From the NCBI RefSeq assembly GCF_024662235.1, contig NZ_CP096276.1, positions 2,604,001 to 2,668,000 of the forward strand: a stretch of 64,000 nt of DNA. Direction: 5' to 3'. The notes under the pieces were generated by a model. The model searched no databases, was not told where the DNA came from, and saw only the letters and a program-made list of their open reading frames with translations. Source of the stretch: Pimelobacter simplex (GTDB taxonomy: Bacteria; Actinomycetota; Actinomycetes; Propionibacteriales; Nocardioidaceae). Of the stretch, positions 10,638-28,733 are shown one piece after another. Each line of letters begins with the position of its first letter. Within the stretch, counting starts at the first letter, position 1. A program made the position numbers and the translations under genes.

Positions 10638-10689
10638 CGGAACACTCCTGTGAGTTGCTGCCCCCATTGGCGCACCTGGACCCGCGACA

Positions 10690-10695: not shown

Positions 10696-10731
10696 CGGAT
10701 CCACGCTCGTCCCTGGGCGCGAATGCGCGGA

Positions 10732-11163: not shown

Positions 11164-11184
11164 GCCGGCCACGGTACCAATCTA

Positions 11185-12140: not shown

Positions 12141-12615
12141 CCTCAGCAAGTACGAGCTGATCGGGGACAACTCGGTCTACGCCAACGAGAGCGGCATCGT
12201 GGTGCCGGTCGTGACCCGGGCCGGCTTCGAGCCCGACCTGACCGGCCAGAGCGAGGGAGCCACGCGCGTGTCCGGCGTGAGCATCCAGCACACGCCCGCC
12301 ACGCGGATCTGGTTCGGCAAGGTGCACAACCTGGCCGGCTACCGCTCGGTCCCCCACCACCACGGCGAGGCCGAGACCGGCGGCTACGTGCTCTCGGGCC
12401 GGGCCCGGATCTACTTCGGCGACAAGTTCGAGGACTACCTCGACATGTCCGAGGGCGACTGGGTGTTCGTGCCGCCGTTCATGCCGCACGTCGAGTGCAA
12501 CCTCGACCGCAACAACCCGCTGACCTGGATGACGACCCGCACGCCCGAGAACATCGTGGTCAACCTCCCCCAGGTCACCGACCACGACCTGCGCGACTGG
12601 ACGGACCGACCGTGA
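12130..12615 (+). CDS. cupin domain-containing protein
   Basis: 161 residues. A single cupin domain carries the metal-ligand motif PHHHGEAETGGYVLSGRARIYFG (histidines about residues 76-78) and a second histidine in FMPHVECN (about 120). It overlaps the upstream FAH gene by 11 bases and the downstream thioesterase gene by 4 bases. It is too short for a gentisate dioxygenase, which has two cupin domains and about 350 residues. It could be a small extradiol-type dioxygenase acting on a (hydroxy)anthranilate-like product, or a non-redox isomerase. Confidence 0.82.
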   Translation: MEPDLSKYELIGDNSVYANESGIVVPVVTRAGFEPDLTGQSEGATRVSGVSIQHTPATRIWFGKVHNLAGYRSVPHHHGEAETGGYVLSGRARIYFGDKFEDYLDMSEGDWVFVPPFMPHVECNLDRNNPLTWMTTRTPENIVVNLPQVTDHDLRDWTDRP

Positions 12616-13544
12616 ACCCGACCTCCCAGATCTTCACCGACGCCGTCACCCTCAAGGAGTGCCCGGCCGAGGTCTTCGACCGCGCGTTCACCGCGACCAC
12701 CCAGCCCTGCCCGTGGCCCAAGGCCTACGGCGGCGACATGGTCGCCCAGGCGCTCGTCGCCGCGTCCCTGACCGTCGAGGGTGGCCCGGGCGGCAAGGCG
12801 ATGCACTCGATGCACTCCTACTTCATGCGGCCCGTCGACATCGGGGCCGAGGTCCGCTACGAGGTCGAGGTGCTGCGCGACGGACGCGGCTACAGCACCC
12901 GCCAGGTGCGCGGCTTCCAGAACGGCAAGCCGGTCTACGTCTGCCTGGCGAGCTTCGCCGCGGGTGAGCCGAGCGGCTCGTTCCAGGCCGAGATGCCCGC
13001 CGCGATCCCCGGTCCCGACACGCTGCCCACCTCGGCGGCCTACCTCGCCGACCGCTCCGGCGGCACGATGACCGGGGTCTCCAAGGACTACTGGCAGCAC
13101 GGCCGCAGCTTCGACATGCGCCACGTACCGGGCCCCGTCTACCTGACCGTCGACGGCGACCGCACGCCGCACCAGGCCATCTGGGTGCGTCCGTACGACG
13201 CGCTGCGCGAGGTCGAGGGGCTCAGCGCCGAGCAGCGCGACGCCGCGGCGCTCGCCTACGTCTGCGACTACACGATCCTCGAGCCCGCGCTGCGGGTGCT
13301 CGGCCTGGCCTGGGCCGACGAGGGCCTGGTCACCGCGAGCCTCGACCACGCCATGTGGTTCCACCGCCCCGTGCGGATGGACGACTGGCTGCTCTACGCC
13401 CAGGAGGCCGTCTCGGTCGACGACGGGCGCGGCATGGCGGTGGGCCGCTTCTTCACCCCCGACGGCCTCCTCGTGGCGACCGTCGTCCAGGAAGGCATGA
13501 TCCGCGCGGGCGCCCCGGCCGCGCAGGCAGGAGGACAGTCATGA
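12612..13544 (+). CDS. tesB: acyl-CoA thioesterase II (TesB-like)
   Basis: 310 residues from GTG 12612, overlapping the cupin stop codon as GTGA. It has the double hot-dog layout of TesB. The first half contains WPKAYGGDMVAQALVAAS and MHSMHSYFMRPVDIGAEV; the second contains the active-site strand SLDHAMWFHRPVRMDDWLLY. It hydrolyses acyl-CoA to acid plus CoA. Between a cupin and an aryl-CoA monooxygenase/reductase, its likely role is to release the modified ring acid from CoA before ring cleavage. It ends overlapping the next gene as ATGA, which indicates translational coupling. Confidence 0.87.
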   Translation: MNPTSQIFTDAVTLKECPAEVFDRAFTATTQPCPWPKAYGGDMVAQALVAASLTVEGGPGGKAMHSMHSYFMRPVDIGAEVRYEVEVLRDGRGYSTRQVRGFQNGKPVYVCLASFAAGEPSGSFQAEMPAAIPGPDTLPTSAAYLADRSGGTMTGVSKDYWQHGRSFDMRHVPGPVYLTVDGDRTPHQAIWVRPYDALREVEGLSAEQRDAAALAYVCDYTILEPALRVLGLAWADEGLVTASLDHAMWFHRPVRMDDWLLYAQEAVSVDDGRGMAVGRFFTPDGLLVATVVQEGMIRAGAPAAQAGGQS

Positions 13545-15901
13545 GGATCGCGATCGTCGGCGGCGGCCCCGGAGGGCTCTACTTCGCCGCCCTGATGAAG
13601 CAGCTCGACCCGGCCCACGAGGTCACCGTGTGGGAGCGCAACGCCCCCGAGGACACCTTCGGGTTCGGCGTCGTCTTCTCCGACGAGACCCTCGGCAGCA
13701 TCGAGGGCGCCGACCAGGTCGTGCACGACCGCATGGAGTCGCGCTTCGCGCGCTGGACCGACATCGACGTCGACGTCGACGGCCGCTCCTACACGATCGG
13801 CGGCCAGGGCTTCGCCGCGATGAGCCGCAAGGAGCTGCTCCAGATCCTCCAGAAGCGCGTCGCCGAGCTCGACGTGACCGTGCACTACCGGACCGAGGCG
13901 CCCGACGTCGACGAGCTCCGCACGTCGTACGACCTGGTGCTGGCGGCCGACGGCCTCAACTCCGTGGTCCGCACCAAGCACGCCGACGTCTTCGGTCCCT
14001 CGCTCGACCGGCGCCACAACAAGTACATCTGGCTGGGCACCGACCTGGTCTTCGAGGCGTTCCAGTTCTTCGTCAAGCAGACGGAGTGGGGCACCATGCA
14101 GATCCACGGCTACCCCTACTCCGACGAGGGCTCGACGTTCATCGTCGAGATGCACGAGGACGTGTGGCGCCGGGCCGGCTTCGACGCGACCGAGCACGAG
14201 GTGCTCCCGCCGGGCGTCTCCGACGAGCACGCCGTGGCCAAGATCAAGGAGATCTTCGCCCGCGAGCTCCAGGGCCACGAGGTGCTGACCAACAACTCCA
14301 AGTGGCTGAGCTTCCACACGGTGCGCAACGAGCGCTGGCACCACGAGAACGTCGTGCTGCTGGGCGATGCCGCGCACACGGCGCACTTCTCCATCGGCTC
14401 GGGCACCAAGCTCGCGATGGAGGACGCGCTCGCGCTCGCCGCCTGCCTGCACGAGCACCCGACCGTCCCGGCGGCCCTGGAGGCCTACCAGACCGAGCGC
14501 AAGCCGGTCGTCGAGTCGACCCAGCGCGCGGCCCAGGCCTCGCTGGAGTGGTTCGAGAACATCGGCATGTACGCCGACCAGGACCCCACGGCGTTCGTCT
14601 TCAACCTGCTCACCCGCTCGCGCCGGATCACCTTCGACAACCTCAAGGAGCGCGACCCCGGCTTCGCCGGCGTGGTCGAGGACGCCTTCGCCCGCACCTA
14701 CGGCGACGGCTCCCCCGGCCCGGCGATGTTCCAGCCGACCCGGATCGGCCCGCTCGAGCTGGCCAACCGCGTCGTGCTGTCCCCCATGGACATGTACACC
14801 GCCGTCGACGGGATGCCCGGCGACTTCCACCTCGTGCACCTGGGCAGCAAGGCCATGGGCGGCGCCGGCCTGGTGATGACCGAGATGACCTGCGTCTCGC
14901 CCGAGGGCCGGATCACCCCCGGCTGCCCCGGGCTCTGGAACGACGAGCAGCGCGACGGGTGGGCCCGGATCACCTCGTTCGTGCACCAGCGCTCGGCCGG
15001 CAAGATCGGCGTCCAGATCGGCCACTCCGGCCGCAAGGGCTCGACCAAGCTGATGTGGGAGGGCATCGACGAGCCGCTCGACGACGGCAACTGGGAGGTC
15101 ATCGCCCCCTCGCCGCTCCCCTACGGCCCGACCTGCCACGTCCCGCGCGAGGCGACCCGGGCCGACCTCGACCAGGTCGTCGCCGACTTCACCGCCACCG
15201 CGCGCCGCGCCGTCGAGGCGGGCTTCGACCTGATCGAGGTGCACGCCGCCCACGGCTACCTGCTCTCGTCGTTCCTCTCGCCGGTCTCGAACCAGCGCAC
15301 CGACGAGTACGGCGGCTCGCTCGACAACCGGCTGCGCTTCCCGCTCGAGGTCTTCGACGCCGTGCGCGCCGTCGTACCGGAGTCGATCCCGGTCACCGTG
15401 CGCATCTCCGCGCACGACTGGCTGCCCGACGGCAACACCGACGACGACGCGGTCGACATCGCGCGCGCGTTCATCGAGCACGGCGCGGCCGCGATCGACG
15501 TCTCCTCGGGCCAGGTGAGCAAGGACGAGAAGCCGGCGTTCGGGCGGTCGTACCAGACCCCCTTCGCCGACCGGATCCGGCACGAGGTCGCCGCCCCCGC
15601 CGGGGTCGCGGTGATCGCGGTGGGCGCGATCTCGTCGTACGACGACGTGAACTCGATCCTCCTCGCCGGACGCGCCGACCTGTGCGCCCTGGGCCGGACC
15701 CACCTCTACGACCCGTCCTGGACCCTCCACGCCGCCGCCGAGCAGGACTACCGCGGCGACGGCGCGACCTGGCCCGTGCCCTGGCAGGCCGGGCGGCGCA
15801 AGCCCCCGACCTCGCGCACCGACAAGATCCCGCCCCGCCTCTCGCTGCTGCGCGACGGCGACGACGGTCTGGTCCACGTGCGCTGGACGCCGGGCCGGTG
15901 A
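13541..15901 (+). CDS. bifunctional aryl-CoA monooxygenase/reductase (salicylyl-CoA 5-hydroxylase / anthraniloyl-CoA monooxygenase type)
   Basis: 786 residues, a fusion. Residues 1-390 form an FAD-dependent aromatic hydroxylase: the GGGPGG Rossmann motif at 7-12 and the second FAD motif LLGDAAHTAHFSIGSGTKLAMEDA around 272-295. Residues about 395-770 form an Old Yellow Enzyme-like FMN domain, with IGPLELANRVVLSPMDMYTA, VQIGHSGRKGS and VHAAHGYLLSSFLSPVSNQR. This is the architecture of 2-aminobenzoyl-CoA monooxygenase/reductase of Azoarcus and of proteins annotated as bifunctional salicylyl-CoA 5-hydroxylase. It would hydroxylate, and perhaps also reduce, anthraniloyl-CoA or salicylyl-CoA with NAD(P)H and O2. 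No aromatic acid-CoA ligase lies in the window; the oxidoreductase pair at 22432-26294 could supply the CoA thioester. Confidence 0.9.
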   Translation: MRIAIVGGGPGGLYFAALMKQLDPAHEVTVWERNAPEDTFGFGVVFSDETLGSIEGADQVVHDRMESRFARWTDIDVDVDGRSYTIGGQGFAAMSRKELLQILQKRVAELDVTVHYRTEAPDVDELRTSYDLVLAADGLNSVVRTKHADVFGPSLDRRHNKYIWLGTDLVFEAFQFFVKQTEWGTMQIHGYPYSDEGSTFIVEMHEDVWRRAGFDATEHEVLPPGVSDEHAVAKIKEIFARELQGHEVLTNNSKWLSFHTVRNERWHHENVVLLGDAAHTAHFSIGSGTKLAMEDALALAACLHEHPTVPAALEAYQTERKPVVESTQRAAQASLEWFENIGMYADQDPTAFVFNLLTRSRRITFDNLKERDPGFAGVVEDAFARTYGDGSPGPAMFQPTRIGPLELANRVVLSPMDMYTAVDGMPGDFHLVHLGSKAMGGAGLVMTEMTCVSPEGRITPGCPGLWNDEQRDGWARITSFVHQRSAGKIGVQIGHSGRKGSTKLMWEGIDEPLDDGNWEVIAPSPLPYGPTCHVPREATRADLDQVVADFTATARRAVEAGFDLIEVHAAHGYLLSSFLSPVSNQRTDEYGGSLDNRLRFPLEVFDAVRAVVPESIPVTVRISAHDWLPDGNTDDDAVDIARAFIEHGAAAIDVSSGQVSKDEKPAFGRSYQTPFADRIRHEVAAPAGVAVIAVGAISSYDDVNSILLAGRADLCALGRTHLYDPSWTLHAAAEQDYRGDGATWPVPWQAGRRKPPTSRTDKIPPRLSLLRDGDDGLVHVRWTPGR

Positions 15902-16296
15902 ACGGCACCCACCGGGGCCGGGTCGAGTGGATCGACACCGACTCCGCGGGGATCCACCACAACACGGCGATCGCGCGGTACGTCGAGTCCGCCGAGGCCG
16001 CGCTCATGCGCGGCCTCGGCCTCGACGGCTACTTCCCGGTGGCCCCGCGGGTCCGCTACGAGGTCGACTTCGAGGCCCCGCTGCGCTTCGGCGACGAGGT
16101 CACCGCGACCGTGCACGTCGAACGGCTCGGCACCTCGTCGCTCACCCTCGCGTTCGAGGTGTGGGGCTGCCCCGAGGGCACCCCGGCCGTGCGCGCCGCC
16201 CGGGGGCGCTACGTCACGGTGCACCTCGACCGCGCCAGCGGGACGGCGTCCCCCTGGCCCGAGGCCTGGCGCTCCCGGCTGGGCGGCGCCTCCTAG
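15898..16296 (+). CDS. acyl-CoA thioesterase, 4-hydroxybenzoyl-CoA thioesterase (hot-dog) family
   Basis: 132 residues starting at GTG 15898, which overlaps the preceding stop codon as GTGA. The single hot-dog fold is recognised from VEWIDTDSAGIHHNTAIARYVE, with the catalytic aspartate of the D-x-D-x-x-G-x4-N pattern near residue 13, and RVRYEVDFEAPLRFGDEVTA. It hydrolyses an acyl- or aryl-CoA. It is the second thioesterase in this operon. One could act on the aromatic intermediate and the other could rescue stalled CoA esters. It is probably the last gene of the transcript that begins at 11268. Confidence 0.87.
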   Translation: MNGTHRGRVEWIDTDSAGIHHNTAIARYVESAEAALMRGLGLDGYFPVAPRVRYEVDFEAPLRFGDEVTATVHVERLGTSSLTLAFEVWGCPEGTPAVRAARGRYVTVHLDRASGTASPWPEAWRSRLGGAS

Positions 16297-16302
16297 GGCA
16301 CA

Positions 16303-17160
16303 ATGCTCCCGATGAGCACCACGGAACCGGCGCAGCCCGAGGCCCGCGGGCGCGGCTCCCGGACCGTGGTCGTGAGCTTCCTCGGCGCCGTCGTACGACG
16401 CATGGGCAACTGGATGCCCATCGGCGGCACCATCGACCTGATGGCGCCGCTGGGCATCGACGGGCCCTCGGTGCGCACGGCCGTCTTCCGGCTCAAGAAG
16501 CGCGGCTGGCTGGAGTCCGAGACCCGCGGCGGGATCCGCGGGTACGCGCTGACCGGCGAGGCGCTGGCCGCGCTGGCGGCCGGTGACGAGGTCATCTGGC
16601 ACGCCCGGCAGCCGGCGGCGCTCGAGGACGGCTGGTGCGTCGTGAACTTCTCGGTGCCCGAGTCCCAGCGCAGCAAGCGCCAGCAGCTGCGCGCCCACCT
16701 GGCCTCGCTGGGCTTCGGCAACGTCGGCACGGCCATGTGGATCGCGCCCGCGCGGATGCAGGCCGCCGCCGAGCGGGCGATCGCCGAGCTCGACCTGACC
16801 CGGCACAGCGCCGTCTTCGTGGGCGACCACGTGGCCGGGCAGGACCTCGCCGCGCTGCTCTACGAAAGCTGGGACCTGACCGGCATCGACGAGCGCTACC
16901 GGGCCTTCATCGACGAGTTCGCGCCGGTGGCCGACGAGCTCGGGGGCAGCGGGGTCGTCGATCCCCAGCGGGCCTTCGCGTCGTACCTGACGGTGGTCGA
17001 TCGGTGGCGCCGGCTGCCCTTCCGCGACCCCGGGCTGCCCCGTGAGCTGCTCGCGGACGACTGGAGCGGCCCGGACGCCGCCGCGCTCTTCGAGCGCCTC
17101 GTGGCGACCCTCGAGGGCCGTGCGCTGGCCCATGCCGCGCGCCTGTGGCCGTCCTCCTGA
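16303..17160 (+). CDS. PaaX family transcriptional regulator
   Basis: 285 residues. It has the PaaX N-terminal winged helix (VVVSFLGAVVRRMGNWMPIG; then PSVRTAVFRLKKRGWLESE), the central domain (WCVVNFSVPESQRSKRQQLR, GTAMWIAPARMQ) and the C-terminal helical domain. PaaX proteins bind aryl-CoA effectors, which suits a gene placed between an aryl-CoA monooxygenase operon and an operon predicted to make an aryl-CoA. Start at ATG 16303 or ATG 16312 (residue 4). It begins only 6 bases after the thioesterase, so it may be co-transcribed with the upstream operon and regulate it. Confidence 0.85.
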   Translation: MLPMSTTEPAQPEARGRGSRTVVVSFLGAVVRRMGNWMPIGGTIDLMAPLGIDGPSVRTAVFRLKKRGWLESETRGGIRGYALTGEALAALAAGDEVIWHARQPAALEDGWCVVNFSVPESQRSKRQQLRAHLASLGFGNVGTAMWIAPARMQAAAERAIAELDLTRHSAVFVGDHVAGQDLAALLYESWDLTGIDERYRAFIDEFAPVADELGGSGVVDPQRAFASYLTVVDRWRRLPFRDPGLPRELLADDWSGPDAAALFERLVATLEGRALAHAARLWPSS

Positions 17161-17188
17161 GCCTGCGCTGACAAGACTCCGCGGTTCG

Positions 17189-17221
17189 CGGATACCCGCC
17201 GCGCTTTCCGGATAGTGGCCG
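17189..17221. promoter_or_regulatory. direct-repeat regulator binding site (GGATA repeats) before the SDR-FMO operon
   Basis: GGATA cores at 17190 and 17210, 20 bases apart. The second sits in CCGGATAGTGGCCG (17208-17221), which matches 7995-8008 at 13 of 14 positions. It lies 70-100 bases upstream of the SDR start codon, where an activator site would be expected. It ties this operon to the flavin reductase/LLM operon. Confidence 0.55.
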
Positions 17222-17293
17222 CCTCCGCTGGTGCCTAGTGTCCCGGTCCACGCGATGTGACCTGCGTCGCAGCGAGGAGCGGAGGAATCAAGC

Positions 17294-18079
17294 ATGACCG
17301 ATCTGACTGGTCGCACCGCGATCGTCACCGGCGGCGCCACCCTGCTGGCGCACGGCGTCATCGACGCCCTGGCCCGCGCCGGTGCCCGTGTCGTGGTGGC
17401 CGACATCGACGAGGCCGGCGGCACCGCGGCCGAGAAGCTCGGTGACGAGGTCGCGTTCGTGCGGACCGACATCACCGACGACGCCGCGGTCGCGGACCTC
17501 GTGGCCGCCACCGTCGAGCGCTTCGGCGGCATCGACATCGTCGTCAACCTCGCCGCGACCTACCTCGACGAGGGCTTCGCGACCAGCCGGGCCGACTGGC
17601 TCACCGCGCTGAACGTCAACCTGGTCAGCATCGTCGAGGTCGTCCGCGCGGCGTACCCGCACCTGCAGGCCAGCGAGCACGCGGCGGTCGTCAACTTCAC
17701 CTCGATCTCCAGCAAGGTCGCCCAGACCGGGCGCTGGGTCTACCCCGCGTCCAAGGCCGCGATCGTCCAGCTCACCCGCTCGATGGCCACCGACTTCGCC
17801 GGCGACGGCATCCGGGTCAACTCGGTCAGCCCCGGCTGGACCTGGTCGAAGATCATGGACGACCTCTCCGGCGGCGACCGCGCCAAGACCGACCGCGTGG
17901 CCGCGCCGTTCCACCTGACCGGACGGGTCGGTGACGGCGCCGAGATCGGCGAAGTCGTCGCCTTCCTCGCCTCCGACGCCGCCTCGATCGTCACCGGCGC
18001 CGACTGGGCCGCCGACGGCGGCTACTCCGCGCTCGGTCCCGAGCAGGCCGTCCCCGCCATCCCGCAGCTCACCGAGTGA
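17294..18079 (+). CDS. SDR family oxidoreductase
   Basis: 261 residues, with GGAGGAA just upstream of ATG 17294. Short-chain dehydrogenase features: a variant cofactor loop TGGATLLAHGV in place of TGxxxGIG; VVVADIDEAGG (acidic residue after strand 2, favouring NAD); catalytic serine in NFTSISSK; Y150-x3-K154 in YPASKAAIV; and SPGWTWS. It oxidises or reduces an alcohol or ketone with NAD(H). It is the first gene of the operon running to 26294. In the proposed indole route it could oxidise dioxindole to isatin, but this is inference from context only. Confidence 0.87.
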   Translation: MTDLTGRTAIVTGGATLLAHGVIDALARAGARVVVADIDEAGGTAAEKLGDEVAFVRTDITDDAAVADLVAATVERFGGIDIVVNLAATYLDEGFATSRADWLTALNVNLVSIVEVVRAAYPHLQASEHAAVVNFTSISSKVAQTGRWVYPASKAAIVQLTRSMATDFAGDGIRVNSVSPGWTWSKIMDDLSGGDRAKTDRVAAPFHLTGRVGDGAEIGEVVAFLASDAASIVTGADWAADGGYSALGPEQAVPAIPQLTE

Positions 18080-18090
18080 GGACCCCTCCC

Positions 18091-19563
18091 ATGAAGATCG
18101 CCATCGTCGGCGCCGGTTTCGCCGGCCTCTCCACGGCCAAGGTGCTGCGTCAGCTCGGGCACGACGTCATCGTCTACGAGAAGACCCTGGACGTCGGCGG
18201 CGTGTGGAGCGCCAGCCGGCGCTACCCGGGCCTCAAGACCCAGAACAACAAGGGCACCTACGCCCTCTCCGACCAGCCGATGCCCAAGGGCTACCCCGAG
18301 TGGCCCTCGGGCGAGCAGGTGCAGTCCTACCTGACGACGTACGCCGAGCGGTTCGGCCTCACGCCGTACCTGCGGCTGGGCACCGAGGTCGAGCTCGCCC
18401 ACCCCACCGACGGCGGCGGCTGGGACGTCACCACGGCGTCCGGCACCGAGCACTACGACCACCTGGTGCTCGCGAGCGGCATCTTCTCCCGCCCGTTCAT
18501 CCCGCCGTTCGAGAACCTCGACCTGTTCGAGAAGCTCGGTGGCGAGGTGATGGCCGCCAGCGACTGGCACAGCCTCGACCAGGTGCGCGACAAGCACACC
18601 GTCGTCGTCGGCTACGGCAAGTCCGCCTGCGACATCACCGTCGAGATCTCCAAGGTCGCCGCCTCCACCACGGTCGTGGCGCGCGAGCTGCTCTGGAAGA
18701 TGCCGCGCAAGGTCAAGGGCGTCCTCAACTACAAGTACCTGATGCTCACCCGGCTGGGCGAGGGTCTCTTCCGCTACCGCTCGGTGGCCGGGCCGGAGCG
18801 CCTGCTCCACGCCCGCGACTCGGCGATGGCCAACGGCATGCTCGGCAGCGTCGAGAAGGTCACCACCAAGCAGCTCAACCTCGACGACCTCGGCCTGGTG
18901 CCCGAGGGCACGTTCAAGGACATCGCGCGCTCGACCGTCTCGCTCGCCACCGAGGGCTTCTTCGAGGGCGTCACCGAGGGCCGGATCGACGTCCAGCGCG
19001 ACACGATCATCGAGCGCTTCGTCGAGCAGGACGGCAAGCCGTTCGCCGAGCTCAGCAACGGCCGGATGATCCCGGTCGACGTCGTCGTCGCGGCGACCGG
19101 CTGGACCCAGGACCTGCCGTTCCTCCCCCAGGAGGTCATGGACAAGCTCACCGACGAGAACGGCGACTACCTGCTCTACCGGCAGATCCACCCGATCTAC
19201 CTGCCCGACCTGAGCTTCGCGGGCTACAACTCGTCGTTCTTCTCGCCGCTCTCGGCCGAGGTCTCGGCGATCTGGATCGGCTCGATGCTCGGCGGCAACC
19301 ACACGCTGCCCAGCACGACCCAGATGCACGTCGCCGTGCGCGACCGGCTCACCTGGATGCGCGAGCGCACGCAGGGCCAGCACGCCCGCGGCACCAACAT
19401 CATCCCGTTCTCGGTGCACAACATCGACGAGGTCCTCTCGGACGTCGGCCTCAACGTCGGCCCGCTCACCCGCGCCCGCCAGTGGCTGCTCCCGATCAAC
19501 CCGAGCAACTACAGCAAGATCACGCCGCGGCTGGCCCGCCGGCTCGGCGTGAAGGCCTCATGA
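18091..19563 (+). CDS. flavin-containing monooxygenase (FMO-like, class B)
   Basis: 490 residues from ATG 18091. The N-terminal FAD motif is VGAGFAGLS (residues 6-14), the central NADPH motif is VVVGYGKSACDI (about 170-182), and WTQDLPFL marks a C-terminal flavoprotein segment. This two-Rossmann layout is that of FMO/Baeyer-Villiger-related flavoproteins, which insert one oxygen from O2 into soft nucleophiles, ketones or indole rings. It follows the SDR gene by 11 bases and overlaps the next gene as ATGA. Oxidation of an indole or oxindole substrate is plausible given the cyclase downstream. Confidence 0.87.
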   Translation: MKIAIVGAGFAGLSTAKVLRQLGHDVIVYEKTLDVGGVWSASRRYPGLKTQNNKGTYALSDQPMPKGYPEWPSGEQVQSYLTTYAERFGLTPYLRLGTEVELAHPTDGGGWDVTTASGTEHYDHLVLASGIFSRPFIPPFENLDLFEKLGGEVMAASDWHSLDQVRDKHTVVVGYGKSACDITVEISKVAASTTVVARELLWKMPRKVKGVLNYKYLMLTRLGEGLFRYRSVAGPERLLHARDSAMANGMLGSVEKVTTKQLNLDDLGLVPEGTFKDIARSTVSLATEGFFEGVTEGRIDVQRDTIIERFVEQDGKPFAELSNGRMIPVDVVVAATGWTQDLPFLPQEVMDKLTDENGDYLLYRQIHPIYLPDLSFAGYNSSFFSPLSAEVSAIWIGSMLGGNHTLPSTTQMHVAVRDRLTWMRERTQGQHARGTNIIPFSVHNIDEVLSDVGLNVGPLTRARQWLLPINPSNYSKITPRLARRLGVKAS

Positions 19564-21164
19564 GCCGCCACTACGACGCGATCGTCGTCGGCGCCGGGAT
19601 CAACGGACTCGTCGCCGCGGCCGAGCTCGCCGGCGCCGGCTGGCGGGTGGCCGTGGTCGAGGAGCGCGACCGGCTCGGCGGCTTCATCGCCTCCGACGAG
19701 CTGACCGCGCCCGGCTTCGTGCACGACACCTTCAGCTCGTGGCACCCACTCTTCGTCGCGGGCGGCGGCTACGCCACCCTCGGCGAGGACCTGCACCGGC
19801 ACGGGCTCGTCTACCGCAACGCCGAGGGACCGGTCACCGCGTCGGTCTCCGAGCGCGGCACGGTCGTCGCCGACCGCGACCCGGAGAAGACGGTCGTCGA
19901 CTTCGAGCACGCCGCCGACGCCCGCGCGTACGCCGAGATGCTGGGCCAGCTCGACCGGTGGGCGCCGCACGTGTTCGGCGCGCTCGGGTCCGAGCTGCGC
20001 ACCGGCGACCTCGCCCGCCTCGGGTACGGCGCCGTGCGCGGTCTCGGCCGCGACGGCCTGACCGAGCTCGTGCGGGTCTCGACGCAGTCCGGGCGCGGCC
20101 TGGCCCGCGAGCGCTTCGCCGGCTTCGAGGTCGACCAGCTCTGGTCGCCCTGGCTGCTGCACGCGGGCCTCGCGCCCGACCAGGCGACCGGCGGGCTGAT
20201 GCTCCCGGTGATGGCGTTCACCATGCACGCGATCGGCCTGCCGATCGTCGAGGGCGGGGCGGGGAACTTCGTCGCCGCCTTCGCCGGCCTGCTCGCCGAG
20301 CGCGGCGTCGACGTCCTGCTCGGCACCCCGGTCGACCGGATCGTGGTGCGCGACGGGCGAGCCGTCGCCGTCGAGGCCGGCGGCGAGCGGCTGGTCGCCG
20401 GTCGCGCGGTGCTCGCCTCCACGTCGACCGGGCGGCTCTACGAGCAGCTCCTCGCCCCCGACGCGGTCACCGACGCCGGCCGCCGGGCCGTCGCCCGGCA
20501 CCGCCCCGGCCGGGCCGCCACCCAGGTCCACCTCGCGCTCGACCGGCCCGTGCGCTGGACCGACAGCCGCCTCGACGCCGTCCCGCTGATCCACGTCAGC
20601 AACGGCGCCGACAGCACCGCCGTCGCCTGCGCCCAGGCCGAGGCCGGGCTGCTGCCGTCCGCGCCCACCGTCGTGGTCGGCCAGCAGTGCGTGCTCGACC
20701 CGACCCGCGCCCCCGAGGGCCGCGCGACGCTGTGGCTCCAGCTCCAGGAGGTGCCCTGGGCACCGACCGGTGACGCGGCCGGCGAGATCGACGTCCGCGC
20801 CGGCTGGACCGCCGCGGTGGCCGACGCCTACGCCGACCGGGTGATCGCCCGGATCGCCGAGCACGCGCCGGACCTGGCCGACAGCATCCTGGCCCGCCAC
20901 GTCATCTCCCCCACCGCCCTCAGCGCCGCCAACGCCAACGCGGTCCACGGCGACCCCTACGGCGGCGCCGCCGAGCTCGACCAGTCGCTGCTGTGGCGTC
21001 CCGGCACCGGGACCGGCCACCGCACCGGTGTCGCCGGGCTCTTCCACATCGGTGCGTTCACGCACCCCGGCCCCGGCCTCGGCGGCGGCTCCGGCCACCT
21101 CGTCGCCCAGCAGCTCCTCACCCCTCGCGGCCTGCGCCGCCTCCCCGAAAGGTTCCGCCGATGA
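19560..21164 (+). CDS. phytoene dehydrogenase-like NAD(P)/FAD-dependent oxidoreductase
   Basis: 534 residues, start overlapping the FMO stop codon (ATGA). The dinucleotide motif VVGAGINGLVAAAELAGAG (residues 9-27) is followed by EERDRLGGFI. The C-terminal GLFHIGAFTHPGPGLGGGSGH is the second FAD contact, as in the CrtI/phytoene desaturase-like amino-oxidase superfamily. There are no carotenoid genes nearby, so a carotenoid role is unlikely. Its place in a catabolic operon suggests oxidation or desaturation of a ring intermediate. The exact reaction is unknown. Confidence 0.85.
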   Translation: MSRHYDAIVVGAGINGLVAAAELAGAGWRVAVVEERDRLGGFIASDELTAPGFVHDTFSSWHPLFVAGGGYATLGEDLHRHGLVYRNAEGPVTASVSERGTVVADRDPEKTVVDFEHAADARAYAEMLGQLDRWAPHVFGALGSELRTGDLARLGYGAVRGLGRDGLTELVRVSTQSGRGLARERFAGFEVDQLWSPWLLHAGLAPDQATGGLMLPVMAFTMHAIGLPIVEGGAGNFVAAFAGLLAERGVDVLLGTPVDRIVVRDGRAVAVEAGGERLVAGRAVLASTSTGRLYEQLLAPDAVTDAGRRAVARHRPGRAATQVHLALDRPVRWTDSRLDAVPLIHVSNGADSTAVACAQAEAGLLPSAPTVVVGQQCVLDPTRAPEGRATLWLQLQEVPWAPTGDAAGEIDVRAGWTAAVADAYADRVIARIAEHAPDLADSILARHVISPTALSAANANAVHGDPYGGAAELDQSLLWRPGTGTGHRTGVAGLFHIGAFTHPGPGLGGGSGHLVAQQLLTPRGLRRLPERFRR

Positions 21165-21952
21165 CCACCGCCCCCAGCACCACGACCGCCCTCGACGGCC
21201 TGCTCACCGCGCTCGCGACCGGCGCGGCGACCGTCGTCGACCTCACCGCGCCGCTCTCGTCCGAGACGCCGATCCTGCAGCTCCCCGAGCCGTTCGCCAA
21301 CACGATCCCGCTCTCGCTCGAGACGGTCAGCGACTTCGACGCCGACGGCCCGTTCTGGGGCTGGCACAACATCCACACCGGCGAGCACACCGGCACCCAC
21401 CTCGACGCGCCGACCCACTGGGCCACCGGACGCGACGGGCTCTCGGTGGACCAGATCCCGCCGGCCCGCCTGGTCGGCCCCGCGGTCGTCATCGACTTCA
21501 CCGCCGAGGCCGAGGCGAACCCCGACCTGCTGCTCGGCCCCGAGCACTTCGAGGCGTACGTCGCCGAGCACGGCCCGCTCCCCGAGGGCGCCTGGCTGCT
21601 CTTCCGCACCGGCTGGAGCAAGTTCAGCCGCGACGCCGATGCGTTCGCCAACGCCGACGAGAACGGCCCGCACACGCCGGGCGTCTCGGCCGAGGGCGCG
21701 CAGTGGCTCGCCGCGTCGTCGATCAGCGGCTTCGGTGTCGAGACCGTCGGCATCGACGCCGGCCAGGCCGGCGGCCTGGAGCCGCCGTTCCCGGTGCACC
21801 ACTTCCTGCTCGGCGCCGACAAGTACGGCCTGACCCAGCTGCAGAACCTCGACCGGCTGCCGCGCACCGGCGCCGTGATCGTCGTCGCGCCGCTCCCGAT
21901 CGTCGGCGGCACGGGCTCCCCCGCCCGCGCCCTCGCCATCGTCCCCGCCTGA
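21161..21952 (+). CDS. cyclase family metal-dependent hydrolase, probable isatin hydrolase-like
   Basis: 263 residues, start overlapping the upstream stop codon as ATGA. The metal-binding signature of the cyclase/kynurenine formamidase-like family is seen as EHTGTHLDAPTHW (H76, H80, D82). Also present are WLLFRTGWSK, GPHTPGVSAEGAQWL and FGVETVGIDAGQ. Members hydrolyse amide bonds of N-formylkynurenine or the lactam of isatin using Mn or Zn. Overall layout and context best fit isatin hydrolase (isatin to isatinate, 2-aminophenylglyoxylate), because the operon next encodes a 2-oxoacid oxidoreductase that could use that product. Kynurenine formamidase is the main alternative, but no tryptophan dioxygenase or kynureninase is seen. 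Confidence 0.82.
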   Translation: MTTAPSTTTALDGLLTALATGAATVVDLTAPLSSETPILQLPEPFANTIPLSLETVSDFDADGPFWGWHNIHTGEHTGTHLDAPTHWATGRDGLSVDQIPPARLVGPAVVIDFTAEAEANPDLLLGPEHFEAYVAEHGPLPEGAWLLFRTGWSKFSRDADAFANADENGPHTPGVSAEGAQWLAASSISGFGVETVGIDAGQAGGLEPPFPVHHFLLGADKYGLTQLQNLDRLPRTGAVIVVAPLPIVGGTGSPARALAIVPA

Positions 21953-21977
21953 TCCGCACCCGAGGAAGGACCGCTCC

Positions 21978-22379
21978 GTGCCCGCCATCACCCCCTATGC
22001 CGACGACCTCAACGCGCTGCCGCCGCTGGCCTCGCGCTACGTCCAGGTCGAGGAGCTGCCCTGGCAGCCCACCGGCTTCGACGGCATCTCGATGAAGACG
22101 CTGCTCCGCGAGCCCGAGACCGGCCTGCTCACCGCGCTGTTCAAGTGGGAGCCCGGCGCCGTGCTCCCCCTGCACGAGCACGTCGAGATCGAGCAGACGT
22201 ACGTCCTCAGCGGCAGCATCGTCGACCTGGAGGGCGAGACCACCGCGGGCAACTTCTCGTGGCGGCCCAAGGGCAACCAGCACAGCGCGACCTCGCCCGA
22301 CGGGGCGCTGCTCATCGCGGTCTTCCTCAAGCCCAACGTCTTCCTCGAAGGCCCCGAGGCGGGCACCACCTTGGAGTGA
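21978..22379 (+). CDS. cupin domain-containing protein (ChrR-like)
   Basis: 133 residues. The single cupin barrel has metal ligands in LPLHEHVEIEQTYVLSGSI (H66 and H68, glutamate near 72) and NQHSATSPDG (histidine near 102). The WKPxG-like FKWEPGAVLPLHEH pattern matches ChrR-type/dihydroxyacetophenone dioxygenase-like cupins. It could be a small oxygenase or a non-catalytic partner. It sits 25 bases after the cyclase gene with GAAGGA upstream of GTG 21978, within the same operon. Confidence 0.8.
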   Translation: MPAITPYADDLNALPPLASRYVQVEELPWQPTGFDGISMKTLLREPETGLLTALFKWEPGAVLPLHEHVEIEQTYVLSGSIVDLEGETTAGNFSWRPKGNQHSATSPDGALLIAVFLKPNVFLEGPEAGTTLE

Positions 22380-22431
22380 CCGCGCGCCCGCGCGTCGCCC
22401 CCTCCCACCACCACGACAAGGAAGATCAACG

Positions 22432-24612
22432 ATGGCCGAGCGGTCCTTCGCCCACGAGGTGCTCAAGCTGCGCGCCGGAGAGGGCACGTCCTTCTCCGGC
22501 GAGGGCATCCTCGCCGTCACCAAGGCCCTGCTGCAGTCCGGAGTGGCGTACGTCGGCGGCTACCAGGGCGCGCCGATCTCGCACCTGATGGACGTGCTCG
22601 GCGACGCGCACGAGATCCTCGAGGAGCTCGGGGTCTACTTCGAGAACAGCGCCTCCGAGGCCACCGCCGCCGCGATGCTCGCCGCGTCGGTGAGCTATCC
22701 GCTGCGCGGCGCGATCACGTTCAAGTCGACGGTCGGCACCAACGTCGCCTCGGACGCGCTCGCCAACCTCTCCAGCGGAGGCGTCACCGGCGGGGCGCTC
22801 GTCATCGTCGGCGAGGACTACGGCGAGGGCTCCAGCATCATGCAGGAGCGCTCGCACGCCTTCGCCATGAAGTCGCAGATGTGGCTGCTCGACCCGCGCC
22901 CCAACATCAGCGCCATCGTCGACGCCGTCGAGGCGGGCTTCGAGCTGTCCGAGGCCAGCAGCACCCCGGTCATGCTCCAGCTCCGGCTGCGCTCGTGCCA
23001 CCTCTACGGCACGTTCACCGCCAAGGACAACAAGCGCCCGCCGATGACGGTGACCGAGGCGATCGAGAACCCCGCGCGCCAGCTCGACCGGATCGTGCTG
23101 CCGCCGGCGAGCTTCCTGCACGAGAAGGAGAAGATCGAGGACCGCTGGCCCGCCGCCGTCGAGTTCATCAAGACCCGCGGCCTCAACGAGGTGCTCGGTG
23201 CGGGCACCTCCGACGTCGGCATCATCGTCCAGGGCGGCGTCTACAACACGCTCAACCGGGCGATGGAGCTGCTCGGCTGCTCCGACGCCTTCGGCAACAC
23301 CCAGGTGCCGGTCTACGTCATGAACGTGACCTACCCGGTCGTCGACGACGAGATCCTCGACTTCTGCGCCGACAAGCGCGCGGTGCTGCTCGTCGAGGAG
23401 GGCCAGCCCGACTACATCGAGCAGAACCTCAACGCCATCCTGCGCCGCGCGGGCTCTCCGGTCGCGCTGCACGGCAAGGACCTGCTCCCGGTCGCGGGCG
23501 AGTACACCGCGGCCGCCGTGACCCGCGGGCTCGACGCCTTCCTGCAGAGGTACGTCCCCGACGTCGTGCGGAGCAGCCCGGCGCTGCTCATGCCCGAGGA
23601 GGACCCGCGCAGCCCGTTCGCGCCGCGGGTCGACGCGGCCGTCGTACGCCCGCGGCCGCCGGGGCTGTGCACCGGCTGCCCGGAGCGCCCGATCTTCAGC
23701 GCGCTCAAGCTGGCCGAGAAGGAGACCGGCAAGCAGCACCACGTGAGCGCCGACATCGGCTGCCACCTGTTCGCCATCAACGAGCCGTTCAACCTCGGCG
23801 CCACCACGATGGGCTACGGCCTGGGCTCGGCCGGCGCCGCGGCACTCAACTCCAAGGACGCCGACCGCCGCACCATCGCCGTCATGGGCGACGGAGGCTT
23901 CTGGCACAACGGCCTGACCAGCGGCGTCGGCAACGCGGTCTTCAACCAGAACGACCAGCTGCTGCTCGTCGTCGACAACGCCTACAGCGCCGCCACCGGC
24001 GGCCAGGACGTGCTCTCGTCCCAGGCCGACAGCGTGCTGCGCTCGACCAAGCACCCCATCGAGAAGGCCGTCCGCGGCGTCGGCGTCAACTGGGTCAGGA
24101 CGGTCAGCAACACCTACAAGATCGGCGCCCTGCGCGACGTCTTCGTCAAGGCGCTGACCACCAAGGAGGCCGGCCCCAAGGTCGTCGTCGCGCAGAGCGA
24201 GTGCCAGCTCAACCGGCAGCGCCGGGTCAAGCCCCAGCGCGCCAAGGCGATCAAGGAGGGCAAGCGGGTCGTCAAGGAGCGCTTCGGCGTCGACGCCGAC
24301 ACCTGCACCGGCGACCACGCGTGCATCCGGGTCTCCGGCTGCCCGTCGCTGACGATCAAGGCCAACCCCGACCCGATGCGCACCGACCCGGTCGCCACCG
24401 TGCTCGACTCCTGCGTCGGGTGCGGGGTGTGCGGCGCCAACGCGCACGCGGCGTCGCTGTGCCCGTCGTTCTACCGGACCGACCTGGTCTACAACCCGAC
24501 CTGGCGCGACCGCGTGCTGAGCAAGGCGCGCGGCGGCTGGATCGGCTTCCTCACCCGTGGCGTCGAGCGCCGCGCGGCACGCTACGAGATCACCCCGGAG
24601 GTGGCGGCCTGA
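22432..24612 (+). CDS. indolepyruvate:ferredoxin oxidoreductase alpha-like subunit (thiamine diphosphate 2-oxoacid oxidoreductase)
   Basis: 726 residues. The N-terminal pyrimidine-binding region has GYQGAPISHLMDVLGDAHE. The thiamine diphosphate module has CTGCPERPIFSALK, HHVSADIGCHLFA and the GDG motif at 486-488 with the cofactor asparagine near 516. The C-terminal ferredoxin-like part has C661-x2-C664-x2-C667 and C677, while the other half is irregular (C625, C631, C637). IorA-type enzymes convert an aryl 2-oxoacid plus CoA to an aryl-CoA, CO2 and reduced ferredoxin. With the isatin hydrolase-like gene upstream, isatinate is an attractive substrate, giving anthraniloyl-CoA; this is inference. 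It overlaps the beta gene (TGATG). Confidence 0.85.
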   Translation: MAERSFAHEVLKLRAGEGTSFSGEGILAVTKALLQSGVAYVGGYQGAPISHLMDVLGDAHEILEELGVYFENSASEATAAAMLAASVSYPLRGAITFKSTVGTNVASDALANLSSGGVTGGALVIVGEDYGEGSSIMQERSHAFAMKSQMWLLDPRPNISAIVDAVEAGFELSEASSTPVMLQLRLRSCHLYGTFTAKDNKRPPMTVTEAIENPARQLDRIVLPPASFLHEKEKIEDRWPAAVEFIKTRGLNEVLGAGTSDVGIIVQGGVYNTLNRAMELLGCSDAFGNTQVPVYVMNVTYPVVDDEILDFCADKRAVLLVEEGQPDYIEQNLNAILRRAGSPVALHGKDLLPVAGEYTAAAVTRGLDAFLQRYVPDVVRSSPALLMPEEDPRSPFAPRVDAAVVRPRPPGLCTGCPERPIFSALKLAEKETGKQHHVSADIGCHLFAINEPFNLGATTMGYGLGSAGAAALNSKDADRRTIAVMGDGGFWHNGLTSGVGNAVFNQNDQLLLVVDNAYSAATGGQDVLSSQADSVLRSTKHPIEKAVRGVGVNWVRTVSNTYKIGALRDVFVKALTTKEAGPKVVVAQSECQLNRQRRVKPQRAKAIKEGKRVVKERFGVDADTCTGDHACIRVSGCPSLTIKANPDPMRTDPVATVLDSCVGCGVCGANAHAASLCPSFYRTDLVYNPTWRDRVLSKARGGWIGFLTRGVERRAARYEITPEVAA

Positions 24613-26294
24613 TGTCGACCACGACCAGCTGGACCGGCGGGCAGCGGCCCCTCACGATCGCGATCCTGGCCATGGGCGGCGAGGGCGGCGGCGTCCTCGC
24701 CGACTGGATCGTCGCGGTCGGCGAGAAGGCCGGCTACCACGCGCAGAACACCTCCGTCGCGGGCGTCGCGCAGCGCACCGGCGCGACGGTCTACTACGTC
24801 GAGCTCTACCCGCCGTCGGTCGGCGAGCGGCCTGCCGGCGTCCGCGCGGAGCCGGTGCTGAGCCTGTTCCCCACGCCCGGCGAGGTCGACGTCGTCATCG
24901 CCTCCGAGCTGATGGAGGCCGGACGCGCCGTCCAGCGCGGCTTCTCCACGCCCGACCGGACCACGCTCATCGCCTCGACCAACCGGGTCTACTCGATGGA
25001 CGAGCGGCTCGCGCTCGGCGACGGCCGGGTCGACAGCAACGGCCTGCTGGAGGCGGCGCACGCCGGCTCACGCAGGCTCATCGCGGCCGACTTCATGAAG
25101 CTCGCCGAGGACGCCCGCAGCGTGATCAGCGCGGCGCTCTTCGGCGCGCTGGCCGGCTCCGGCGAGCTGCCCTTCGAGCGCGAGCGCTTCGAGGACGCCA
25201 TCCGCGCCTCGGGCAAGGGCGTCGACGCCTCGCTCGCCGCCTTCGCCTCCGGGTACGACGCCGCGGGCCGCCCCGCGCCCGTCCCCCTCCCCGCACCCGC
25301 CGCCGCGTCCGGCCCGGCCGGCAGCGGACCGGTCCCCGTCACCATCGGGCGGCGCCGCCCGGTCGACCCCGCCGAGGAGGCCGCCGCCGAGGAGGAGCGC
25401 CGCCGCGACGAGATCGCCCGCTCCCACCCCGGCCACCTCGTCGGGCCACACCTGCAGCCCCAGGCCGCCCGGGTCGCGAGCGCCTTCCCGGTCGCCGCCC
25501 GCTCGATGCTGCTGCACGGCTGCGTGCGCACGGCCGTCTACCAGGACCCCTCCTACGCCGACCGCTACCTGGCCCGGGTCGCGCGGCTCGCCGCGGTCGA
25601 CCCGGACGCCGAGGGCGAGGCCGCGCTGACCACCGAGGCCGCCCGGCACGTCGGGCTCTGGATGACCTACCAGGACACGATCCACGTCGCCCAGCAGAAG
25701 ATCCGGCGCCGCCGGATCGAGGGCGTGCGCGCCGAGGCCAAGGCCGCGCCGGGTCAGCTCGTCAACGTGCGCGAGTACCTGCACCCCCAGGTCGAGGAGA
25801 TCACCGACACCCTGCCCACCCGTCTGGGTCGCTGGCTCGCCGGATCGTCGTTCTTCGCCAAGGTCGTCGGCAAGGTGACCCGCAACGGCATCGTGGTCAA
25901 CACGACCGGGATCATCGGCTTCACCCTGCTCTGGATGATGGCCCGGTTCCGCCCGCTGCGGCCGCGCTCGCTGCGCTTCGGCCGCGAGCAGGTCGCCATC
26001 GACGCCTGGCTCGACCGGGCCGTCGCCGCGGCCGCCACCGACGCCGACCTGGCCCGCGAGATCGTCGAGTGCCAGCGCGTGCTCAAGGGCTACGGCGCCA
26101 CGCACCACCACGGCCAGGAGAGCTTCGGGCTGCTCATGGAGGCCGTCGACGGTCTCGCCGGGCGTTCCGGCGCCGCCGCCGAGCTGGCCCGGCTGCGCGC
26201 CGCCGCCCTCGCGGACGAGGACGGCGGCGCGCTGCGCGCGGCACTCGCCGCGCCGGCGCTCAGAACGGCGCCGGCAGTGCCGGCCGGCACCTGA
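24612..26294 (+). CDS. indolepyruvate oxidoreductase beta-like subunit with long C-terminal extension
   Basis: 560 residues. The first ~200 match the gamma/beta domain of 2-oxoacid:acceptor oxidoreductases: LAMGGEGGGVLADWIVAVGEK, then TSVAGVAQRTGATVYYVELYP. A proline/alanine linker follows, then a ~330-residue C-terminal region (from about 240) like the DUF6537 extension found in large fused IOR proteins. This region has HVGLWMTYQDTIHVAQQKIR and a hydrophobic stretch GIVVNTTGIIGFTLLWMMARF. Classic IorB is only about 200 residues. It pairs with the alpha subunit, whose stop it overlaps. The last 35 bases overlap the convergent lipase gene. Confidence 0.83.
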   Translation: MSTTTSWTGGQRPLTIAILAMGGEGGGVLADWIVAVGEKAGYHAQNTSVAGVAQRTGATVYYVELYPPSVGERPAGVRAEPVLSLFPTPGEVDVVIASELMEAGRAVQRGFSTPDRTTLIASTNRVYSMDERLALGDGRVDSNGLLEAAHAGSRRLIAADFMKLAEDARSVISAALFGALAGSGELPFERERFEDAIRASGKGVDASLAAFASGYDAAGRPAPVPLPAPAAASGPAGSGPVPVTIGRRRPVDPAEEAAAEEERRRDEIARSHPGHLVGPHLQPQAARVASAFPVAARSMLLHGCVRTAVYQDPSYADRYLARVARLAAVDPDAEGEAALTTEAARHVGLWMTYQDTIHVAQQKIRRRRIEGVRAEAKAAPGQLVNVREYLHPQVEEITDTLPTRLGRWLAGSSFFAKVVGKVTRNGIVVNTTGIIGFTLLWMMARFRPLRPRSLRFGREQVAIDAWLDRAVAAAATDADLAREIVECQRVLKGYGATHHHGQESFGLLMEAVDGLAGRSGAAAELARLRAAALADEDGGALRAALAAPALRTAPAVPAGT

Positions 26295-27195: not shown

Positions 27196-27295
27196 CGTTC
27201 CCTCCCGTTGGGATGCGGTGACAAGGTCTTCCAGGAGTGTGGCGGCGCTCACAGCCCAGCACGACTGGCCCGGCTCTGGAATTCGGGAGCCGCCT

Positions 27296-27311
27296 TTGTG
27301 ATCCTTCACAA
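27296..27311. promoter_or_regulatory. inverted repeat before the PucR-type gene
   Basis: TTGTGA-TCCT-TCACAA, a perfect 6-base inverted repeat ending one base before the proposed GTG start at 27312. Possible autoregulatory operator; no direct proof. Confidence 0.35.
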
Positions 27312-28514: not shown

Positions 28515-28528
28515 GCGGGCTGGATCGT

Positions 28529-28622: not shown

Positions 28623-28733
28623 CCAGCCCCGCCCCATCGGCTCAACCGATGACTTGAGCCAAAAGGATTCGTTTGCCAGGTGACTCCGGGGGTCCGCACC
28701 ATGGTGCTGCGCCTCACACTTGGAGTTGAAACC

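What the first reader, a model, noticed from the sequence alone, without database searches (positions are those of the whole stretch)
13541..26294. Possible indole-ring catabolic system: isatin to isatinate to anthraniloyl-CoA without a CoA ligase
An isatin hydrolase-like cyclase (21161) is followed by an indolepyruvate oxidoreductase-like pair (22432, 24612). Isatinate is an aryl 2-oxoacid, so this pair could decarboxylate it oxidatively to anthraniloyl-CoA. The fused monooxygenase/reductase at 13541 is of the type that acts on anthraniloyl-CoA or salicylyl-CoA. No aromatic acid-CoA ligase is present, which this route would explain. An SDR, an FMO and a phytoene-dehydrogenase-like flavoprotein at the head of the operon could oxidise indole, oxindole or indole-3-acetate to isatin. 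I know of no gram-positive locus described with this combination. Basis: domains seen; family reactions known; the pathway assembly is inference.
Basis: partly seen in the sequence, partly recalled or inferred. Interest (0 to 1): 0.85.

Follow-up and report, generated by a model that had tools for sequence, protein, structure and literature searches.

The report
Isatin breakdown genes feeding anthraniloyl-CoA
A Pimelobacter-like soil bacterium carries a gene cluster that probably opens the indole-derived ring compound isatin and turns the product straight into a CoA-activated acid without spending ATP; the core of the cluster recurs in several bacterial phyla, but no enzyme of it has been tested here.

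Summary
The genes are real and in place. The cyclase (21161-21952) is an isatin hydrolase by sequence (48-50% identical to three solved ones, far from kynurenine formamidases), though its signature reads GLTQ, not GLQC/GLAS. The pair at 22432-26294 is a 2-oxoacid:ferredoxin oxidoreductase of IorAB type. Their linkage is not chance: all 11 order genomes with this IorA have the hydrolase, against 35 of 293 overall, and the two lie within 1 kb in 17 of 80 named loci from three phyla. Fourteen loci add the anthraniloyl-CoA-type monooxygenase/reductase; 6 of those 14 genomes show no benzoate/anthranilate-type CoA ligase at E<=1e-60. So isatin -> isatinate -> anthraniloyl-CoA is the best reading (about 0.55). 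Against it: a ligase lies 1.6 Mb away in this genome and inside the cluster in 4 of 6 same-genus relatives; 19 of 80 IorA genomes lack the hydrolase; a 2025 preprint restores anthranilate in Variovorax without iadA/iadB. IorAB in auxin (iad) loci is already in print; the coupled ligase-free route I did not find. Upstream substrate unknown.

The parts
6944..7927 (-). AraC-family regulator, divergent from the flavin reductase
   Evidence: Pfam; 54-66% identical to the AraC beside LLM/flavin reductase in 6 of 6 same-genus loci
8057..8536 (+). flavin reductase
   Evidence: PF01613; orthologue in 6 of 6 same-genus loci
8566..9678 (+). luciferase-like FMNH2 monooxygenase, related to SfnG and RutA
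   Evidence: both model cut-offs missed; 82-86% identical in 6 of 6 same-genus loci
9675..10667 (-). second AraC-family regulator
   Evidence: Pfam
10732..11172 (-). RidA-family protein; candidate enamine/imine deaminase (role inferred)
   Evidence: PF01042; in 6 of 6 same-genus clusters
11268..12140 (+). FAH-family hydrolase
   Evidence: PF01557; in 6 of 6 same-genus clusters
12130..12615 (+). small cupin
   Evidence: PF07883; in 2 of 6 same-genus clusters
12612..13544 (+). TesB-type acyl-CoA thioesterase
   Evidence: Pfam; TIGR00189 cut-off missed
13541..15901 (+). fused FAD monooxygenase / OYE reductase: 2-aminobenzoyl-CoA monooxygenase/reductase or salicylyl-CoA 5-hydroxylase type
   Evidence: NF006101 over cut-off; only full-length copy in the genome
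15898..16296 (+). 4HBT hot-dog thioesterase
   Evidence: same family between IorB and the monooxygenase in L046 (Pfam) and, by reading, in L069
16312..17160 (+). PaaX-family regulator
17294..18079 (+). SDR dehydrogenase (possibly dioxindole to isatin; inferred)
   Evidence: near IH/IorAB also in an alphaproteobacterium, L093
18091..19563 (+). FMO-like flavoprotein (upstream oxidation; inferred)
19560..21164 (+). phytoene-dehydrogenase/CrtO-like flavoprotein (upstream oxidation; inferred)
   Evidence: in 10 of 80 named loci
21161..21952 (+). isatin hydrolase (isatin to isatinate)
   Evidence: 48-50% identity to LaIHA, LaIHB, RsIHA; metal site HTGTHLDAPTH, WxW, catalytic Asp and His kept; signature GLTQ
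21978..22379 (+). ChrR-type cupin
   Evidence: PF12973; absent from this place in Pimelobacter simplex ATCC 6946; beside RidA in 4 of 6 same-genus loci
22432..24612 (+). IorA-like ThDP/[4Fe-4S] subunit; proposed isatinate:acceptor oxidoreductase, CoA-acylating
24612..26294 (+). IorB-like gamma-domain subunit with DUF6537
   Evidence: PF01558, PF20169; NF006179 687 bits, cut-off 348
28680..30128 (+). NCS1 permease, candidate uptake system (role inferred)
   Evidence: PF02133; directly follows IorB in P. simplex ATCC 6946; not found in the other loci by similarity, though a gene barely over the same Pfam cut-off (24.9 of 23.5 bits) stands beside IH in L046

Best explanation
The cluster is the lower part of a catabolic route for an indole-type compound. 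An upstream set (SDR, FMO, phytoene-dehydrogenase-like flavoprotein, perhaps the luciferase-like monooxygenase) yields isatin (inferred). The Mn-type isatin hydrolase at 21161 opens the lactam to isatinate, i.e. 2-aminophenylglyoxylate (strong by sequence). IorAB at 22432/24612 decarboxylates this aryl 2-oxoacid oxidatively with CoA, giving anthraniloyl-CoA, CO2 and reduced ferredoxin (inferred from linkage and family chemistry). The fused monooxygenase/reductase at 13541 hydroxylates and reduces the ring of that CoA ester (family reaction); RidA, the thioesterases and the FAH hydrolase finish deamination and ring opening (inferred). The ATP-dependent anthranilate-CoA ligase thus becomes optional; this genome keeps one 1.6 Mb away, perhaps for free anthranilate from its TDO/kynureninase route.
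For: Isatin hydrolase by sequence and active site. IorAB linked to it: all 11 genomes of the order with an IorA orthologue have the hydrolase, 35 of 293 overall (P 1.5e-11 ignoring kinship); in the flanks of 47 of 80 named IorA loci and elsewhere in 14 more genomes; within 1 kb in 17 of those 47, in Actinomycetota, Alpha- and Gammaproteobacteria and Acidobacteriota. The monooxygenase/reductase joins in 14 of 47. Of those 14 genomes 6 have no ligase of this family at E<=1e-60, three of them isolates: Nocardioides acrostichi, Pseudomonas gessardii, Novosphingobium cyanobacteriorum. In the order, 6 of 6 genomes with the full-length monooxygenase but no IorA keep the ligase adjacent (4) or within 6 kb (2); of 9 with IorA, 6 have it adjacent, 2 far away and 1 (the same genome as N. 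acrostichi) not at all. L046 and L069 link IorAB, a 4HBT thioesterase, the monooxygenase, a gentisate-dioxygenase-like cupin, FAH and the hydrolase. IorA keeps ThDP and Fe-S motifs and its model matches oxalate oxidoreductase, TMt 0.65.
Against: No activity was measured. The genome has an orthologous ligase elsewhere; 4 of 6 same-genus clusters hold one, as do two other-family genomes, G143 and G125, so ligase and IorAB often coexist; 8 of the 14 genomes above have one (one with an internal stop). The preprint PMC12633357 reports that iadC-K2, by its name without iadA/iadB, restores anthranilate fully in a Variovorax deletion mutant. IorAB occurs without the hydrolase in 19 of 80 genomes and the hydrolase without IorA in 24 of 35 order genomes, so neither needs the other. 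The hydrolase motif is GLTQ, not GLQC/GLAS. The contrast in ligase adjacency (6 of 6 against 6 of 9) is small; I did not test it formally and do not take it as significant.
Confidence: 0.55

Rival explanations
1. Isatin is hydrolysed here, but isatinate reaches free anthranilate by another way; the ATP-dependent ligase then makes anthraniloyl-CoA, and IorAB works on another aryl 2-oxoacid such as an arylpyruvate.
For: Ligase orthologue in the own genome and inside 4 of 6 relatives' clusters; IorAB without hydrolase in 19 of 80 genomes, 11 of them with TRAP transporter genes in the locus; Variovorax iadC-K2, by name without iadA/iadB, makes anthranilate (PMC12633357 passages).
Against: Hydrolase and IorAB are neighbours across three phyla; 6 of 14 genomes with hydrolase, IorAB and monooxygenase show no ligase of this family at E<=1e-60; IorA misses the NCBIfam cut-off for indolepyruvate oxidoreductase (275.7 of 650.9 bits).
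Confidence: 0.27
2. The substrate is a relative of isatin, for example substituted, N-alkylated or an oxygen analogue, and the fused enzyme acts as a salicylyl-CoA-type 5-hydroxylase.
For: Actinobacterial hydrolases share the altered motif T[QS] where the characterised ones have QC or AS; NCBIfam names the fused enzyme salicylyl-CoA 5-hydroxylase/oxidoreductase.
Against: The metal, pocket and catalytic Asp/His positions of isatin hydrolase are kept; RidA recurs in the same-genus clusters, which fits a nitrogen-bearing intermediate.
Confidence: 0.13
3. The cyclase is a kynurenine formamidase and the cluster belongs to tryptophan breakdown through kynurenine.
For: It is the only PF04199 match in the genome, and the genome has TDO and a neighbouring kynureninase-like gene.
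Against: TDO and the kynureninase-like gene lie about 0.5 Mb away; KynB structures match at E 1e-4 or worse against 1e-73 to 1e-76 for isatin hydrolases; arylformamidase cut-off missed, 38.5 of 223 bits.
Confidence: 0.04

Closest known systems
iad auxin-degradation locus of Variovorax/Bradyrhizobium (PMC9613470 passages; preprint PMC12633357 passages)
   Same: [quoted passage not shown] the preprint names a cyclase IadI, annotated kynurenine formamidase. In Variovorax L058 the order IorA-IorB-Rieske-small subunit-ligase-thiolase-DUF35-hydrolase and its QC motif suggest that IadI is this isatin hydrolase (inference).
   Different: Upstream part is Rieske IadCDE plus a side-chain ligase and thiolase, absent here; end product anthranilate, no monooxygenase/reductase in the fetched flank of L058. 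The passages that I read give IadAB no step.
Anthranilate-CoA pathway of Azoarcus evansii / Arthrobacter sp. Rue61a (PMC3534580 passages)
   Same: Fused 2-aminobenzoyl-CoA monooxygenase/reductase, with PaaX-related regulators in a gram-positive.
   Different: There anthraniloyl-CoA comes from an ATP-dependent ligase, assayed in Rue61a; no isatin hydrolase or IorAB is mentioned in the passages read.
Phenylglyoxylate:acceptor oxidoreductase and indolepyruvate:ferredoxin oxidoreductase (recalled)
   Same: CoA-acylating oxidative decarboxylation of aryl 2-oxoacids; same superfamily.
   Different: IorA is below the indolepyruvate equivalog cut-off; substrate here inferred.
Alcaligenes In3 route indole-indoxyl-isatin-anthranilate-gentisate (cited in review PMC6221969, passages)
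   Same: L069 Alcaligenes faecalis and L046 Pseudomonas gessardii link IorAB, monooxygenase, gentisate-dioxygenase-like cupin, FAH and the hydrolase.
   Different: No such large cupin among the window's scanned proteins; a 36% homologue lies about 1.65 Mb away.

Membership tests
isatin hydrolase | Metal motif HxG[T/A]HxDxPxH | tested here: met
   HTGTHLDAPTH
isatin hydrolase | Aromatic pocket motif WXW/FXW | tested here: met
   WGW at the aligned place
isatin hydrolase | Catalytic Asp193/His207 of LaIHA | tested here: met
   Aligned Asp and His kept
isatin hydrolase | Signature GLQC or GLAS (PMC6117287) | tested here: not met
   GLTQ; of 56 hydrolases in 90 loci 29 show QC, 6 AS, 13 TQ, 2 TS at that place, 6 no pattern match
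isatin hydrolase | Hydrolyses isatin, Mn-dependent | not testable with these tools
   no assay
kynurenine formamidase KynB | NCBIfam TIGR03035 cut-off | tested here: not met
   38.5 of 223 bits
indolepyruvate:ferredoxin oxidoreductase IorA (TIGR03336 equivalog) | Curated score cut-off | tested here: not met
   275.7 of 650.9 bits
2-oxoacid:ferredoxin oxidoreductase superfamily | ThDP motif and Fe-S cysteines; fold | tested here: met
   GDGGFWHNG in 89 of 90 rows, C-terminal cluster patterns in 89 and 90 of 90; my narrow pattern for the ThDP-domain cluster matched only 21 of 90, though its cysteines C413 and C416 are invariant in 24 aligned rows. Foldseek: oxalate oxidoreductase TMt 0.65 at rank 26, model pLDDT 66.5, higher ranks are other ThDP enzymes poorly superposed. 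No PDB sequence matched at E<=0.001
2-aminobenzoyl-CoA monooxygenase/reductase | FAD monooxygenase fused to OYE reductase, NF006101 cut-off | tested here: met
   1216 of 1078 bits; the model does not tell amino- from hydroxybenzoyl-CoA
iad auxin locus | Rieske IadDE oxygenase | tested here: not met
   Not among the 20 proteins scanned from window 6944-30128

The most novel reading that the evidence does not exclude
IorAB of this clade is an isatinate:ferredoxin oxidoreductase (2-aminobenzoyl-CoA forming): a widespread, ATP-free entry into anthraniloyl-CoA. It would give IadA/IadB of the auxin loci a role, and in Alcaligenes and Pseudomonas it would hand its product to the monooxygenase/reductase and a gentisate-dioxygenase-like cupin, supplying genes for the indole-isatin-anthranilate-gentisate route proposed in 1983.
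Probability: 0.42. Interest if true: 0.8.

Novelty: new variant of a known kind. Interest (0 to 1): 0.6.

Why it matters
Several reported routes of indole and auxin breakdown pass through isatin or anthranilate, yet the step from isatinate onward has no assigned enzyme in the passages that I read, and a 2018 review (PMC6221969, passages) calls the anthranilate-to-gentisate enzyme unreported and asks whether isatin is a true intermediate. A conserved hydrolase-IorAB-monooxygenase set names candidates for these steps and predicts that decarboxylation pays for CoA activation instead of ATP. It is testable with two purified enzymes.

Tried and rejected
Kynurenine formamidase reading of the cyclase: rejected on scores. 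'No ligase in the organism': rejected. A palindrome ATGCAATATCGCAT upstream of FAH as a shared operator: exact at 11214, one other window match with 3 mismatches (1.05 matches expected by chance), none at up to 2 mismatches in 16 related loci, one of which (L029) does not reach that far upstream; dropped. A regular-expression scan for AMP-binding ligases in 14 loci uses a recalled motif and misses the known ligase of L030; not relied on. The IorA model has low confidence (pLDDT 66.5) and the top Foldseek rows are badly superposed ThDP enzymes; used only for fold class. Two more loci, L035 and L092, hold the monooxygenase beside IorA without the hydrolase in the flank and are not among the 14. 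Of 22 order genomes with a monooxygenase match, 7 match over one part only and were left out of the ligase table. TRAP genes also occur beside IorAB in one locus that has the hydrolase, L062.
Full report
Observation. The window lies in a 6.26-Mb genome; the closest named relative of its IorA in the scan is Pimelobacter simplex ATCC 6946 at 97%, collinear at 92-93% DNA identity in three blocks within 11963-34000. All genes in the finding are intact and placed as stated. Against P. simplex the window has two extra stretches: the cupin at 21953-22431, between hydrolase and IorA, and 26248-28590 (lipase, PucR); in P. simplex the NCS1 permease follows IorB directly.

The cyclase. phmmer against PDB sequences gives four isatin hydrolase sequences at E 2e-76 to 1e-73 and kynurenine formamidases only at 1e-4 to 7e-4. 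Realigned, it is 50, 48 and 49% identical to RsIHA, LaIHB and LaIHA; metal motif, aromatic pocket and the catalytic Asp and His are kept, but the GLQC/GLAS signature named in PMC6117287 (outline and passages read) is GLTQ. Of 56 hydrolases in 90 IorA loci, 29 carry QC and 6 AS at that place, 13 TQ, 2 TS, and 6 did not match the pattern; the QC and AS rows are proteobacterial or acidobacterial and the TQ and TS rows actinobacterial.

The oxidoreductase. IorA scores 275.7 bits on the indolepyruvate equivalog model (cut-off 650.9), while IorB passes the broader NF006179 (687 of 348). The ThDP motif and the C-terminal Fe-S patterns are near-invariant in 90 rows; a narrow pattern for the ThDP-domain cluster matched 21 of 90, although its cysteines are invariant in 24 aligned rows. 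A model of modest confidence resembles oxalate oxidoreductase (TMt 0.65, rank 26), below ThDP-enzyme rows with poor superposition.

Linkage within the order. IorA was found in 13 of 293 genomes at E<=1e-30, 11 of them orthologues (74% or more; one over part of its length) and 2 remote (30-34%). The hydrolase occurs in 35 of 293, and in all 11 orthologue genomes (hypergeometric P 1.5e-11, ignoring kinship); the other 24 hydrolase genomes have no IorA orthologue. In 10 fetched loci of other genomes the hydrolase lies in the 18-20 kb in 9; in the tenth it is 32 kb away. All 6 same-genus loci carry monooxygenase/reductase, FAH, TesB, 4HBT, PaaX and RidA, and the flavin reductase, luciferase-like monooxygenase and AraC unit, in another arrangement than the window; the phytoene-dehydrogenase-like gene shows in 5 and the SDR in 1 of these stretches, which end near there.

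Linkage across phyla. The hydrolase lies in the fetched flanks of 47 and elsewhere in 14 of the 33 other genomes, leaving 19 without it at E<=1e-30. It is within 1 kb of IorAB in 17, three of them on the other strand. Contexts of the 47: 22 with a Rieske oxygenase (iad type), 14 with the monooxygenase/reductase. A tree of 93 IorA rows places 10 of 11 rows labelled TRAP, all without hydrolase, in one supported group of 12.

The ligase question. Four of 6 same-genus clusters hold a benzoate-CoA-ligase-family gene between TesB and the monooxygenase (two of these four loci are near-identical; the family model's cut-off is missed, 316 of 375 bits in the two tested). The own genome has an orthologue (69%) at C1:981142-982758, far from the window, and one full-length copy of the monooxygenase. 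Of 15 order genomes with full-length monooxygenase, 6 lack IorA and have the ligase adjacent (4) or within 6 kb (2); 9 have IorA, with the ligase adjacent in 6, distant in 2 and absent in 1. This contrast is too small to carry weight by itself. Of 14 named genomes with hydrolase, IorAB and monooxygenase in one locus, 6 have no match at E<=1e-60 and 8 have one, one of them with an internal stop; other CoA ligases of these genomes could act on anthranilate. Free anthranilate may come from a separate TDO plus kynureninase-like pair (the second gene recognised by reading).

Downstream. Pseudomonas gessardii L046 orders NCS1-like permease (barely over the Pfam cut-off), hydrolase, phytoene-dehydrogenase-like, VOC, AraC, IorA, MFS-like, IorB, 4HBT, monooxygenase/reductase, a 376-aa cupin of gentisate-dioxygenase type, FAH and a carbon-nitrogen hydrolase (AraC, MFS and the gentisate-dioxygenase name by reading, the rest by Pfam or by similarity to the window). 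Alcaligenes faecalis L069 shares IorAB, a 4HBT-like gene, the monooxygenase, the cupin, FAH and the hydrolase. The review PMC6221969 (passages) cites an Alcaligenes route indole-indoxyl-isatin-anthranilate-gentisate and calls the gentisate enzyme unreported. In the window the small cupin might stand in, but 4 of 6 same-genus clusters lack it.

Literature. [quoted passage not shown] The preprint PMC12633357 (outline and passages) states that the nine-gene region iadC-K2 suffices for anthranilate; iadA and iadB are not in that range by name and are not mentioned. C8H7NO3 (the formula of isatinic acid) and C7H7NO accumulate strongly only in strains overexpressing that set. I read this as compatible with a missing isatinate-consuming enzyme, but it also shows that anthranilate can form without IadAB. 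In searches two listed papers hold both an isatinate term and aminobenzoyl-CoA (PMC9613470, PMC6221969); the passages that I read in them do not join the two by an oxidoreductase. The library lacks most subscription papers.

Verdict. Hydrolysis of isatin or a close relative: about 0.8. IorAB acting on isatinate to give anthraniloyl-CoA: about 0.55. Upstream steps: open.

Noticed in passing
window 51532-58623 (-): 2363-aa LPXTG-anchored surface protein with 17 CshA repeats.
   Followed up: no
window 38260-40932 (-): OYE-family flavin oxidoreductase fused to a pyridine-nucleotide reductase part.
   Followed up: no
window 8057-11172: Flavin reductase, luciferase-like (RutA/SfnG-related) monooxygenase and RidA recall the Rut pyrimidine set; an N-heterocycle ring-opening role is possible.
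   Followed up: partly
L048, L050, L103 and kin: A betaproteobacterial IorAB clade without isatin hydrolase stands beside TRAP transporter genes; its aryl 2-oxoacid is unknown.
   Followed up: partly
L046:20160-20990: A carbon-nitrogen hydrolase (nitrilase superfamily) follows FAH in the Pseudomonas gessardii cluster; it may point to a nitrile or amide of indole as substrate.
   Followed up: no
window 21953-22431 and 26248-28590: Two stretches present in the window but absent from Pimelobacter simplex ATCC 6946 in otherwise collinear DNA.
   Followed up: no
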